Source: Nipponacmea schrenckii
Taxonomy: Eukaryota; Mollusca; Gastropoda; Lottiidae
DNA length: 64,000 nt
Assembly (NCBI GenBank): GCA_030562195.1
Contig: CM060199.1
Location: 20,170,338 to 20,234,337 of the forward strand
Reading direction: 5' to 3'
Below the pieces are notes generated by a model, which worked only from the letters and a program-made list of their open reading frames with translations, did not search any database and was not told the origin of the DNA. This document shows, one piece after another, positions 429 through 11,600 of this stretch; position 1 is the stretch's first letter, and every line of letters begins with the position of its first letter. The translations under genes were made by a program, and so were the position numbers.

Positions 429-2985
429 ATGTTTTTTCAGATCAATACAGTTAGTATGTGGAAGGTTTTTACAGCGTTCGGCCTTTGGACTTTGACGTCA
501 TTCCTGTGTCATTATATTGGAAAACTTGTTTTAAAGTCTGAAACTGAGAATGAATTAACAAATAATTTAATCAGAGCCTTCCTTCTGACTATTTACCAAA
601 CCTTTATGTGTTTTTGCCTCACAGAAGTAAAATTTTACAACTGTACAGTGTATATATGTATTGCTGTATGCCACTTTTTGGCTACTTTATCCACGAACTG
701 CAGTATGGCCCTGATATTCGCATCTTCTACATTTGCTATCAAATTGATGGAGCCCATTACAAGTGCCTGCGTACAGCGACTCTTATTGGCAACTCCGTTA
801 CATCCGTCGATATATGTTAGCCTTCCATTGATAGTAGGTGGAGCATGTATGTTTACTGGAAATCCATTGACAGATACATATCTTTCTAAAGGTACCCTCA
901 TGGCCTTTCTGTCCAACGTCATTCTGGCATTCAGAAACGTCGGAATCAAAATTGATCACAACAATTCTTCAAGTTTGAATTTACGGCCTATCTCAACTCT
1001 AGCAATTGTGATGATTTGTCACCTGGTTTTCACAGTGGTTCTCCATGTTATTGAGACTCATAATGGTGCTGGAAACATTTTGACACGCGCCGTCGTTTTG
1101 ACTGAGTTATCAAGTGTTTTTCATGTGGTGTATTCTTACATTTCGACAAATATAGTATTGAGGTACATGTCGGTGTTAAGTCATTCCGTGTGCAACATTA
1201 TGAAAAGAGTATTAGTGGTTATATTACTGTACATAGTGGGCAGTAGACATGCCTCGTTTTCTAATTTTCTGGGCCTGGTGATCAGTACTGCTGGATTGTT
1301 TATATATGTTGGTTCCAAACATACCTGGAAGAATTCTAACAAAAGAGATGGCATATCGAAGGAAGCAGGTAAGTATTTCGCATTGCCATAGCTTTTTTTC
1401 AGGGAATTTTGTTCGTTGTGCATTCATGAGTAACACATTGTAAAATAATTCACTTACGCCTTTAGCCGTCAATAATAGACACCGATATTAATTTTAAAGC
1501 ATTGGGTTTTATGAAGATGTAAGTTTCGTGGACTATCTCTTCTGATAATTCATTTGCTTCACAAATACTCGTGAACAGAGACACGTAATATACTTATGTT
1601 AGGATGCATCTGGTCAAAATATCAAAATATGTTTTATATGTATCTATATTACAGGTAAAGGAGACAGAATGAGTATCAAGATAGCTGTTTTCCTCATGTC
1701 CTTTGTTTCTTTGAATATTGTTGGAATGTATAGCTACACCAATATAATAGTGGGACATAGAGATGCTTATTGGGAAAAAATTTCATTGCAAGATTTCGAA
1801 TCACGTTCATTTGGTAGGAAATCATTACAAATGATAGAAACAACAGATCTGGAACCATCCATCGATGACGGACATTTTGAAAATGGACCAATTCTAAAGA
1901 GATTTCTCAGAACAAAGCTTATAAACACACCTTACGATACTGATATTCTCTCCCCGCATCTTAAAACTAGCACAGAAGTCATCCGAGAGGCTCAGAGAGT
2001 ACATTTCAACCTCTTCAAAGATTTGCTACATGGTTTCCGGTACGCCATGTTGCTTGATGTTGCTGCGTTTGAAAACAAAGGCGACCCTGCCATTTCTGCT
2101 GGTGAAATATATCTGTTACGAAGGCTGGGTATTGATCTCATTTACTACTGTAGTTATTACTATTGCAAAGATAAAAATCTTCAATATGCCAGGAACATGA
2201 GTTCAAACTTGTCTAATAAGGAACTTGTTATTCTCGTTCACGGCGGTGGCAACATCATTGGCTATCCTAGTAATGATGTCCTAAGGTTTAAATTTTTAGA
2301 TTTATTTAAAGGTTTTAAAATAATAGTTATGCCACAAAGTATATTCCTGAGAAATAAAGACGCACATTTCGAACGTTGCAAAAAGCTTTATTGTTGCAAT
2401 AAGAATTTAACATTTATTTTAAGAGACAAGCAATCACTTTCCATGGCTCAAACGTACTTTAACAATGGCACAAATTTATTTATGGCACCGGATATGGCAT
2501 TTCAGATTGGAAGAGTTAAAAGATTCATTAGTCCCATGTATGATATATTATGGCTAAAACGAAAGGATGATGAAACACCTAATTATGTTATACCCAAGAT
2601 ACCTGAAGGAATGTCTGTTTTAGTTAAAGACTGGTGGGGTTTTCTTACGCCAAAGGGGGAGAATTCTTTGGAAAATGCCTTTCTAATGGCAACGACTGGC
2701 ATGATGTTTTTACAGAGAGGTAGAGTTGTGATAACAGATAGACTGCATGGCCATATTTTATGTACTCTGTTAGATATACCTCATGTATTAATAGATAATA
2801 AATACAAGAAATTGTCTAGCTTCCACAGGACTTGGACTCAAGGAGTAGAGAACACTTTAATCACAACAAATGCCACCGAGGCAGTGTATTTGGCCTTACA
2901 TCTATTGAATAAATATAATAACGTCATTCCACCTGTTGCGCCATTCATGAATGTTGTTGAAAATCCATCCAACCGTAAAGGATAA
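429..2985 (+). CDS. TPT/SLC35-type transporter fused to a polysaccharide pyruvyltransferase (two exons)
   Basis: Join 429-1368 and 1655-2985. The first exon ends in phase 1 at a GTAAGT donor; the second starts after TTACAG and continues the frame. From ATG 429 the product is 756 residues. Residues about 10-305 hold ten hydrophobic segments laid out like a triose-phosphate translocator, with Arg169 and Lys174 in helix 6 and the family's Lys-Arg pair (259-260) in helix 9. A further hydrophobic segment follows at about 322-347. The C-terminal domain shows pyruvyltransferase motifs: FENKGDPA (452-459), HGGGN (509-513) and TDRLHG (674-679). Known families: TPT proteins exchange phosphorylated C3 compounds including PEP, and pyruvyltransferases put pyruvate from PEP onto glycans. 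Inferred role: Golgi PEP import coupled to glycan pyruvylation, with the eleventh segment placing the enzyme in the lumen. The start is uncertain: ATG 429, ATG 456, or an upstream exon joined at the acceptor ending at 440. Confidence 0.8.
1369..1654 (+). other. Intron joining the transporter and pyruvyltransferase exons
   Basis: This 286-bp GT-AG intron has donor GTAAGT at 1369 and acceptor TTACAG ending at 1654. Without splicing the transporter frame stops at 1391. With splicing the codon GGT is rebuilt and Lys-Gly-Asp-Arg leads into Met1669. The joined length from ATG 429 (940 + 1331 nt) is an exact multiple of three. ATG 1669 could also start a separate pyruvyltransferase transcript anchored by its own hydrophobic N-terminus, so RNA is needed to choose. 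Confidence 0.75.
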
Positions 2986-3025: not shown

Positions 3026-3031
3026 AATAAA
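3026..3031 (+). promoter_or_regulatory. Poly(A) signal of the fusion gene
   Basis: A canonical AATAAA lies 41 bp after the stop codon that ends at 2985, in a T-rich 3' region. Spacing and strand fit a short 3' UTR. Confidence 0.6.
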
Positions 3032-8643: not shown

Positions 8644-11600
8644 ACCATTTGAGAGTGAATAATTAACCAAAACTTTGTAGTCAGTAAAAATGGAAATGGA
8701 CTTTCCTAATCATTCAGATATAGATAACAACATGTCTCGAAGCTCGTCATCCAGTATGAATTCTTTAGATCAACCATTTCCACCAGCAGATGGATTTGTG
8801 GATCAACCTGAGTCAGATGATGAAGATAATCAATCTTTTACCAGTAGTGGCACCAAATCCCCACCCCCACCTTCCTCAAGACACAAAAAATTCCTGTTTC
8901 CTAAAAATGAATTTGTGGATCATCTACGACCGGAGGAGATCAACTGGTTCTTCAAACAAGAAGGTGATAAAAAGTGGACACCTTTCATCGGTTATGATTC
9001 CCTGCGAATCGAGTGTCGTTATAGAGCCCTGGCATTCGGTCCCCAGGCTGTTGAACAAGATATTGATGTTAAAGAGAGAATATTAGTTAGAGGTGGTCTT
9101 TATGAAGTAGATGTTGACAGTAAACAGTGTTTTCCTATCTACTGGTCTGGTAAGTTTCTGTTTCCTCTTTTTGTCGCAATCTTGTTTTAATCTTTAGATA
9201 TTGGAAGTGCCTATGATCACCAGTTGAGTGGTTACAGCCAAATAATCTTTACAATCTTTACATTGATAACCAGACCTTCCTTACATTTGTATCAAAAGGT
9301 ACAAAAGGTCTGGTCATGTCCAGCATATAGGGCCAAATCAACAGCCCTTATTCAAAACCATCTTTATATTGGTAACCAGACCTTCTGTACAGTACCTTCT
9401 TTACATTTGATGATTGGAAAATTTGTTTAAAGATGCTTACAAAATGAAATGTAGTGCACTTAGTATACATACTTTCTTTACATTTGTAACAAAAACTTTT
9501 TTACATTGGTAAACAGACCTTCTGTACAATACCTTCTTTACATTTGTAACAAAAACATCTTAACATTGGTAACCAGACATTCTGTACATTACCTTCTTTA
9601 CATTTGTATCAAAAACATCTTTACATTGGTAACCAGATCTTCTCTACAATTGTAACCAAACCTTTACATACCAGAATAACATAACCTTCTTTTATATTGG
9701 CAACCTTCTTTACATTAGTAACCAAATCTTCACATTGTTACCTACAATATCACTTACTGTGTGACTACCTGTACATACTAAATTTTAAGAATCGTTTATT
9801 ATGACTATGACAATGACTTGGTCCAAAACTCTAAAGAAGGTCACAGAAATGAAGAGTTTAAAGATTGAAGAAATGAACTAAGTAATCATCATAAACTGAA
9901 ATATGAATTTGTGGATCATCTTCTGGTGATTCAATCTTTGGTTGGTCACAGCCTGTGATGCAAGTCCTAAGGTACAGCTGTGACTTACTTCAGTGCATTC
10001 ACCTCCTCGTCAGAATATAATTAATAATAAAGTACTTAACAACATAAACTGCTTTGTCACATTAATTATTTACTGCATGGTTGAGAAGCCATGTTGTTCC
10101 ACATAAGTTGCTGTAAACAGAATGTTTAATGAGACCAACAATTGCACAAAGATTGACAATAATTAGCAAATTATATATGATAGAATTTTGGATTCTGTTG
10201 TCTGCACAACTCTATATGTGACTTTTTTTAAATTGTGTTGACTTGATGATTTTTTATATTATAAAATCAATATTGCAATTACCAGTATATAGAATATAAT
10301 ATGTGTTATCAACTTATCACTATAGAACTATATACATGGAACTAATTGTAATTTGATATGAAACAGTAATACTGATCCTACATTGATATTGAAGTATAAT
10401 AATAAATACATTACTGTATAAATTTGACTTGCTGTCTCTAAATCTTAAAATAGATCATATTATATCTTTATGCCAGTATATACAAATTATTGTGAAAGAA
10501 GAAATATACAAGACTATAATTTCTTTATATAAAGCAATAAAAGAGCTCAAAATTGTGAGTGCTGGATTATCATGAGTATCCCTTTTTAGACATTTCACTC
10601 AAAACTAAGTGTTAGATGACGTCACTAACTGTACAAAATATGTTTGTATCACATTATGCCTTTGCAATTAGTGATGCCATCTTAATTTTGGTGGAATTGC
10701 AGAAATTACAAGTCAAGGAAACCATTAGCACATTAAGAAGCAGAAACGTAAGAATTCAATAATAGGTTATACCAGTTTCTTTTTGACACAATTTCTATAA
10801 TAGAACATTATATTTTCTAGGTGATGTATCTACTATATTAAGAGGTACCTGGTTTCATGATGGTACTTGGCAGCCATTGGAAGAGGATTATTCAAATCAG
10901 CTTGAAACCGAACATTTAGCTAATTTTATGGGTCAGAGAATAGAGAATGCCCCGCCTACTATTGTTAAAGGTCCAAAACCTGGTGAGTTGACAAATTTTT
11001 CACCGTAATTGTACTTTGCTGATGTACTTAATTTAAATATACTGTCTTTACTTATATGATACTTTATATTTTACGTCCTTGGTCTTTGAAACCTGTGTGA
11101 TTTTAGTTTGTGATTACTCGGAAACGAATTTCCAGTCATCAAAGATTGCTCAAAAGATGAGGGACTAAACATGGTGTCATCATACTTCTTAGAGGCCATG
11201 GTAATACATGTGGGGAAAATTGTTTATAGCTACATATCTAGGAAATGTCTATCAATTAAAATTAAATCACTAGTTATATATAGATGCTTTGTTCTGATTT
11301 CCTTGCTTTCAAATGAAATGTAGAGTACTTAGTTTCATGCAGGTTAATAGACCATGCCAAAACCTGTATTCAAGAAACATTACAATGCTGACTTACCTGG
11401 TGACATAATTATTCAACAGAACCTCTTAGCAATCAATAATCTAAAACCAAGCAAGTAATAATTGATAAATGCTTAAAAGGTTTCATGGTTATGCATGTTT
11501 GAGTAAGAACTCATTAGCACTATAATGATTGTGTATAGATCAGGATTTGAAAAATTTTCTTTGTATATTGTTTAGATGATAAATGAAACATGAATATGTG

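What the first reader, a model, noticed from the sequence alone, without database searches (positions are those of the whole stretch)
429..2985. Transporter and pyruvyltransferase encoded as one protein: a possible PEP-import/pyruvylation machine
Seen: a ten-helix TPT-type domain and a pyruvyltransferase domain (HGGGN, TDRLHG) on two exons with matching phase 1 edges and a joined length divisible by three. Established: pyruvyltransferases use PEP; plant TPT relatives carry PEP; fission yeast makes pyruvylated galactose in the Golgi with a separate pyruvyltransferase (Pvg1) and separate Golgi PEP transporters (Pet1/Pet2); pyruvylated galactose glycolipids are known from sea-hare (Aplysia) nerve. 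Inferred: the fusion imports PEP and hands it to its own lumenal enzyme. I know of no described animal protein of this design.
Basis: partly seen in the sequence, partly recalled or inferred. Interest (0 to 1): 0.88.

Follow-up and report, generated by a model that had tools for sequence, protein, structure and literature searches.

The report
Transporter fused to its own pyruvyltransferase
A limpet gene appears to encode one protein that joins a membrane transporter, probably for phosphoenolpyruvate, to the enzyme that would use that cargo to decorate sugars with pyruvate; the same design recurs in many snails, a clam, a copepod and some single-celled parasites and algae, so one molecule may import and spend its own substrate.

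The parts
430..440 (+).
   Evidence: In paralog L026 the same place reads TTGTTGTTTCAG|ATCAAC, without the ATG
441..1368 (+). exon 1: TPT transporter, ten membrane helices; likely start ATG at 459
   Evidence: Pfam TPT 73.5 bits at 465-1307; AF2 of relative P0003 shows ten helices; Ka/Ks 0.28 against the paralog
1369..1654 (+). phase-1 intron, GTAAGT...ACAG
   Evidence: same position and phase in L026 and L027
1655..2985 (+). exon 2: end of linker, TM11, stem, pyruvyltransferase, stop codon 2983-2985
1669..1725 (+). TM11 (MSIKIAVFLMSFVSLNIVG), the odd helix that would turn the enzyme to the lumen
   Evidence: hydropathy 1.83 over 19 residues; AF2 helix 323-344 of P0003; best hydropathy 1.6 or more in 50 of 56 full-length rows
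2074..2802 (+). PS_pyruv_trans domain with NKGD (D457), RD (R570), TDRLHG (R676, H678); residue numbers count ATG 429 as 1
   Evidence: Pfam 80.3 bits; aligned to Pvg1 5ax7, E 3.3e-35
3026..3031 (+). AATAAA polyadenylation-like signal after the stop codon
   Evidence: AATAAA occurs about 1.8 times per kb here, so weak evidence alone

Best explanation
One gene makes a single membrane protein: a TPT/SLC35-fold transporter (ten helices, both ends in the cytosol), an eleventh helix, a flexible stem, and a Pvg1-like pyruvyltransferase in the lumen of the Golgi (or ER). The transporter exchanges cytosolic PEP for phosphate; the enzyme moves pyruvate from PEP to galactose-type glycans as a ketal and frees phosphate, which leaves through the same transporter in exchange for the next PEP. 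Shown here by computation: the joined gene structure, its conservation, selection on both halves, the folds (of a relative) and the kept site residues. Inferred: splicing in the cell, topology, PEP as cargo, Golgi location, phosphate antiport, acceptor sugar, any direct hand-over.
Against: No transport or enzyme assay, no localisation, no reads mapped. The TPT half scores 84 bits against a cut-off of 317.9 for the curated phosphate/PEP translocator subfamily TIGR00817, so PEP specificity does not follow from family. SLC35B1, a nucleotide exchanger, uses equivalent basic residues, so they mark phosphate binding, not PEP. The third locus here (L027) and relatives P0096, P0123, P0125 keep the enzyme motifs but have a hydrophobic N-half that scores below zero against the mollusc TPT profile, so the enzyme may not need its own transporter. 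Unfused TPT copies also exist in this genome. TM11 plus stem evolves with little constraint (Ka/Ks 0.87), and in 6 of 56 rows no strong eleventh helix was found.
Confidence: 0.72

Rival explanations
1. Two neighbouring genes: a TPT gene ending at 1391 and a separate type II pyruvyltransferase starting at ATG 1669.
For: Both frames would close or open plausibly: read-through stop at 1391, ATG 1669 just before a signal-anchor-like helix. L. gigantea P0001 and P0002 keep that Met. Unfused TPT copies exist on C13 and many enzyme-only entries exist in databases.
Against: The three pyruvyltransferase loci found in this genome share the same phase-1 joint; ATG 1669 reads ACC (Thr) in the paralog L026 and the read-through tail is not conserved; database annotations join the two in 22 named mollusc species (tally); transcript-sized contigs hold the whole fusion.
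Confidence: 0.03
2. The TPT half is now only a membrane anchor or assembly domain; PEP comes from another carrier.
For: Locus L027, P0096 and the proteins P0123 and P0125 (Tigriopus) keep catalytic motifs beside an N-half with no TPT score. Unfused TPT copies could supply PEP.
Against: In this gene and the 68 aligned fusions the phosphate-site residues are almost invariant, and the TPT exon is under purifying selection (Ka/Ks 0.28).
Confidence: 0.12
3. The transporter moves another phosphorylated cargo (triose phosphate, a nucleotide or other anion) and the fusion couples two steps of a different pathway.
For: The residues conserved bind phosphate in general; SLC35B1 uses equivalents for nucleotides. 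The residue at the place of Gs H185 is T in 55 of 68 rows (M in 2, gap in 11), unlike the red-algal protein.
Against: PEP is the donor of the ketal-pyruvyltransferases described in the texts I saw (PMC6801904 passages; PMC8615578 title and start of abstract), and fission yeast relies on Golgi PEP transporters for the same reaction (passage).
Confidence: 0.13

Closest known systems
Schizosaccharomyces pombe Pvg1 with Pet1 and Pet2
   Different: Three separate proteins there, one polypeptide here; Pet1/Pet2 sequences were not compared
Plastid-type triose-phosphate/phosphate translocators (Galdieria sulphuraria TPT, 5y78/5y79)
   Different: About 22-24% identity, far below the TIGR00817 cut-off, no plastid context; a further helix and an enzyme follow
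Cryptosporidium and Vitrella proteins (P0138-P0145; database names such as 'AMSJ/WSAK like polysaccharide polymerase', 'Polysaccharide pyruvyl transferase', 'integral membrane with 10 transmembrane domains') and unnamed transcript P0146
   Same: Same order: transporter, extra hydrophobic helix, pyruvyltransferase; K204, R266, Y339, K362, R363 equivalents kept in the 4 of 9 that were aligned
   Different: Transporter half only distantly related (28-56 bits against a mollusc profile, 78 for the red-algal TPT); one or two fusion events unresolved
Pyruvylated glycosphingolipids of Aplysia kurodai nerve
   Same: A gastropod product that needs such an activity (passages)
   Different: Enzyme not identified in what I read; link to this gene is inference

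Membership tests
PS_pyruv_trans / Pvg1-like ketal-pyruvyltransferases | Pfam PF04230 gathering score 25.3 bits | tested here: met
   80.3 bits; E 3.3e-35 to Pvg1 5ax7
PS_pyruv_trans / Pvg1-like ketal-pyruvyltransferases | Catalytic/PEP residues D106, R217, R337, H339 of Pvg1 | tested here: met
   Conserved in 68, 67, 68, 68 of 68 fusion rows; window D457, R570, R676, H678
PS_pyruv_trans / Pvg1-like ketal-pyruvyltransferases | GT-B-like fold | tested here: met
PS_pyruv_trans / Pvg1-like ketal-pyruvyltransferases | Transfers pyruvate from PEP to a sugar | not testable with these tools
   needs an assay
TPT family of the drug/metabolite transporter superfamily | Pfam PF03151 gathering score 30 bits, ten helices | tested here: met
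Curated plastid phosphate/PEP translocators (TIGR00817) | Score cut-off 317.9 bits | tested here: not met
   84.4 bits, E 9.7e-24: a relative, not a member
Phosphate-exchanging TPT-type transporters | Phosphate-binding K204, K362, R363 | tested here: met
   K in 62 of 68 (R 2, gap 4), K in 68, R in 68 of 68; role of the three from PMC9010763 passage
PEP transporters | Transport of PEP against phosphate | not testable with these tools
   needs reconstitution
Golgi lumenal (type II-like) glycan-modifying enzymes | Membrane helix with cytosolic positive flank, stem, lumenal catalytic domain | tested here: inconclusive
   Charge bias and sequon excess fit, but 6 of 56 rows lack a strong helix and location was not tested

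The most novel reading that the evidence does not exclude
A self-feeding transferase: one protein runs a closed PEP-in/phosphate-out cycle across the Golgi membrane and passes PEP to its own lumenal active site, the first donor importer and glycan-modifying enzyme known to me in one chain. The design arose at least twice, in animals and in alveolates (Cryptosporidium, Vitrella), and in molluscs it makes the long-known but enzyme-less pyruvylated glycans.
Probability: 0.25. Interest if true: 0.88.

Novelty: new variant of a known kind. Interest (0 to 1): 0.77.

Why it matters
Glycan pyruvylation is well known in bacteria and fission yeast but scarcely in animals, and the review passages I read name no animal enzyme. 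This family gives a concrete candidate across gastropods, including the genus Aplysia, where pyruvylated lipids were reported in 1992 (reference seen). It also puts donor supply and donor use into one chain, which makes substrate coupling at the Golgi testable. The same layout in Cryptosporidium is notable because two polysaccharide pyruvyl transferases are among C. parvum female-stage transcripts discussed with the oocyst wall (PMC6877471, passage); I did not check whether those two are the fusion.

Tried and rejected
Considered and rejected: (1) two separate genes (see rivals); (2) ATG 429 as start: not conserved in the paralog and inside an acceptor; (3) an annotation artefact: same joint in the three loci found in this genome and in annotations of many species; (4) other acceptors in the intron: 6 of the 7 listed give no open join; (5) the animal enzyme as an offshoot of the bacterial clade that holds the top-scoring bacterial row (L001, with L002 and L011): rejected, p-AU 0.00015; other bacterial groupings were not tested, so an older transfer stays possible; (6) a viral source: 12 viral stretches matched a pattern, none encoded a relative.

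Left open: one or two fusion events. For one event: the enzyme tree weakly joins animals and alveolates (62/87), and the alveolate enzyme profile scores its best animal rows (up to 227 bits, median 181) above L001 (167) and Pvg1 (155); the alveolate transporter profile scores its best mollusc rows (28 bits) above the red-algal TPT (13), with a mollusc median of 14.5. For two events: the mollusc transporter profile scores the red-algal TPT (78) above the alveolate fusions (28-56), and the transporter tree joins the red-algal TPT to animals at 88/75 with long branches. Not rejected: animals plus Pvg1 (p-AU 0.093), animal plus alveolate transporters (p 0.22).

Led nowhere: literature for K204/K362 beyond PMC9010763; Elysia with phosphate translocator (no papers); tRNA scan (none). 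The alveolate model is of modest confidence (pLDDT 70.8, pTM 0.49) and was not fold-searched. Rows dropped before counts: hits with one domain only were left out of A2 (68 of the 120 listed were used; the 13 further hits of that call were not listed); 12 of 68 rows were left out of the topology count as incomplete; of 21 bacterial loci, L009, L014, L019 and L021 were not translated, and L015, L017 and L018 were left out of the tree, which has 14. The enzyme tree holds 19 of the fusion proteins and 10 other animal rows, the transporter tree 12 animal and 5 alveolate rows, my choice.

Literature: ten searches, open-licence PMC papers only; no listing named a TPT-pyruvyltransferase fusion. I saw passages, not whole papers, of PMC6801904, PMC6994554, PMC4872226, PMC9010763 and PMC6877471; PMC8615578 only as title and start of abstract. 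Recalled, from no call: T188, H185, R266, Y339 as binding-site residues of the red-algal TPT; strict phosphate counter-exchange by plastid translocators; the reading of 'lgn' contigs as assembled read sets; T. kingsejongensis behind the label 'Tk' (the listing names no organism for P0101 or P0123; P0123 is sister to T. californicus P0125 at 100/100).

Full report
What is there. The window is contig C8:20170338-20234337 of an unnamed 399 Mb genome, by protein identity (82% to Lottia gigantea) a limpet. At its left end lie two long open frames on the + strand. The first holds a TPT transporter domain (Pfam 73.5 bits), the second a polysaccharide pyruvyl transferase domain (80.3 bits). Donor CAG|GTAAGT at 1368/1369 and acceptor TTACAG|G at 1654/1655 are both phase 1, and the join is open throughout. 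Of the seven acceptor-like AGs listed between 1391 and 1680, two have a richer pyrimidine tract, but only this one gives an open join.

Is the joint real? Very probably, on several grounds. (a) Two L. gigantea models run collinearly across it. (b) The genome has three matches to the enzyme family. The second, L026, has a transporter exon at 85% and an enzyme exon at 78% amino-acid identity to ours, with the same splice sites and phase. Over 939 and 1330 aligned bases the exons are 89% and 84% identical with frames intact, while the introns align at only 60% (169 of 280) with 296 gap columns. (c) The third locus, L027, close to L. gigantea P0096 (84% over 427 residues, 66% over the N-terminal 200), has the same phase-1 joint although its N-half scores -3.9 bits against the mollusc TPT profile, where ours scores 373 (a profile made of its relatives). 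(d) ATG 1669, the start that a separate enzyme gene would need, is ACC in L026, and the tail that a separate transporter would read into the intron is not conserved; against this, both L. gigantea models keep that Met. (e) No AATAAA lies between 1391 and 1669; one lies at 3026, and three lie inside exon 2. No RNA reads were available, so splicing itself is inferred.

Correction of the start. ATG 429 lies inside TGTTTTTTCAG|ATC, and the paralog has TTGTTGTTTCAG|ATC there. Exon 1 therefore most likely begins at 441 and translation at ATG 459 (746 aa), unless a coding exon lies upstream. Residue numbers in this report still count ATG 429 as 1.

How widespread. A search with the joined protein gave 133 hits, 120 listed; 68 of those carry both domains. 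Together, my typed tally has 82 fusion entries: 30 organism names (22 molluscs, of which 21 gastropods and the clam Ruditapes philippinarum; seven Cryptosporidium species or genotypes; the alga Vitrella brassicaformis), one entry labelled Tk10180 that I take for the copepod Tigriopus, and 4 unnamed entries. Some lineages have many copies, e.g. 12 entries in Pomacea canaliculata. Three unnamed contigs of 2653-2862 bp encode complete fusions of 723-791 aa, most simply transcripts. Only relatives sharing exact words with the queries can be found this way, so absence elsewhere is not shown.

Topology. In 56 full-length rows the loops predicted cytosolic carry net charges of +0.16, +0.52, +0.32, +1.09, +0.46 and +1.64, the others -0.37, -0.22, -0.64, +0.34 and +1.19, the stem -1.52; loops 7-8 and 9-10 are the exceptions. 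The 15 residues before TM11 carry +1.9 on average, those after it +0.25. Stem plus enzyme hold 5.3 sequons on average against 2.76 after shuffling. In 6 of 56 rows the eleventh helix is weak. This fits a lumenal enzyme, as for Golgi Pvg1, but is prediction only.

How it would work. The ketal-pyruvyltransferases described in what I read use PEP; in fission yeast Pvg1 sits in the Golgi and two transporters bring PEP (passages of PMC6801904 and PMC4872226). Pyruvyl transfer frees phosphate (title of PMC8615578), and TPT-type proteins hold phosphate with the residues conserved here (PMC9010763 passage; structure 5y78 is with inorganic phosphate). The simplest model is an exchange cycle, PEP in and phosphate out, with the donor delivered next to its enzyme. 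Direct channelling is speculation: the stem is predicted disordered (segment 342-369 under pLDDT 50).

What speaks against it. The transporter half is far below the cut-off of the curated phosphate/PEP translocators (84 of 317.9 bits). A nucleotide exchanger uses equivalent basic residues. Some relatives (P0096, P0123, P0125, and L027 here) keep the enzyme motifs while the N-half no longer scores as TPT. This genome also has unfused TPT relatives: a tandem pair on C13 (66% identical to ours, own stop codons) and two lone exon copies on C8 about 25-30 kb from L026; the enzyme search listed nothing near them. So transporter and enzyme can part company within the family.

Origin. In a 49-row enzyme tree all 29 animal rows form one clade (100/99) in which fusions are spread throughout, including near the base (Tk10180 with an abalone protein, 99/83), so fusion looks ancestral for this animal family and the enzyme-only rows derived or fragmentary; this is inference. 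The five alveolate-type rows form their own clade (97/98). Whether animals and alveolates share one fusion is open. The enzyme half leans to one event: the tree weakly joins them (62/87) and the alveolate profile prefers animals to Pvg1 and bacteria. The transporter half is mixed: the mollusc profile scores the red-algal TPT (78 bits) above the alveolate fusions (28-56), the alveolate profile scores its best molluscs (28) above the red-algal TPT (13), and the transporter tree is weak and full of long branches.

Novelty. Ten searches of the open-licence library listed no paper that names this fusion; papers outside that library were not searchable. The parts and the reaction are known; their union in one chain is, as far as I could find, undescribed: a new variant of a known kind.

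Noticed in passing
window 36128-63416, minus strand: A run of long Ser/Thr-Pro repeat frames ('PTSTTDV' type), several sharing the same non-repeat end, looks like tandemly duplicated mucin-like genes in the same window as the pyruvyltransferase; the one scanned had no Pfam match.
   Followed up: partly
window 8681-9190, plus strand: An exon with a WWE-type domain (Pfam WWE_2, 32.9 bits), resembling a DDHD-type phospholipase (recalled).
   Followed up: partly
L027 (C14:5168500-5178400, minus strand); P0096, P0123, P0125: Relatives with enzyme motifs intact but a hydrophobic N-half that no longer scores as TPT; in L027 the frame is still open and 66% identical to P0096, so it may have a new role.
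   Followed up: partly
L042 (C13) and L041 (C8:31297000-31306500): Unfused copies of the same TPT exon: a tandem pair with its own stop codon on C13, and two lone copies on C8 that still carry the donor site, with no enzyme listed nearby.
   Followed up: partly
P0014, P0015, P0017, P0019, P0020, P0023, P0111: Sea-slug (Elysia, Plakobranchus) members are named 'triose phosphate/phosphate translocator, chloroplastic' or 'phosphoenolpyruvate/phosphate translocator 1, chloroplastic' in public databases and could be mistaken for genes taken from algal food in kleptoplasty studies.
   Followed up: partly
P0092: A pyruvyl transferase filed under a Candidatus Thiodiazotropha MAG falls inside the animal clade, probably contamination from an animal host.
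   Followed up: partly
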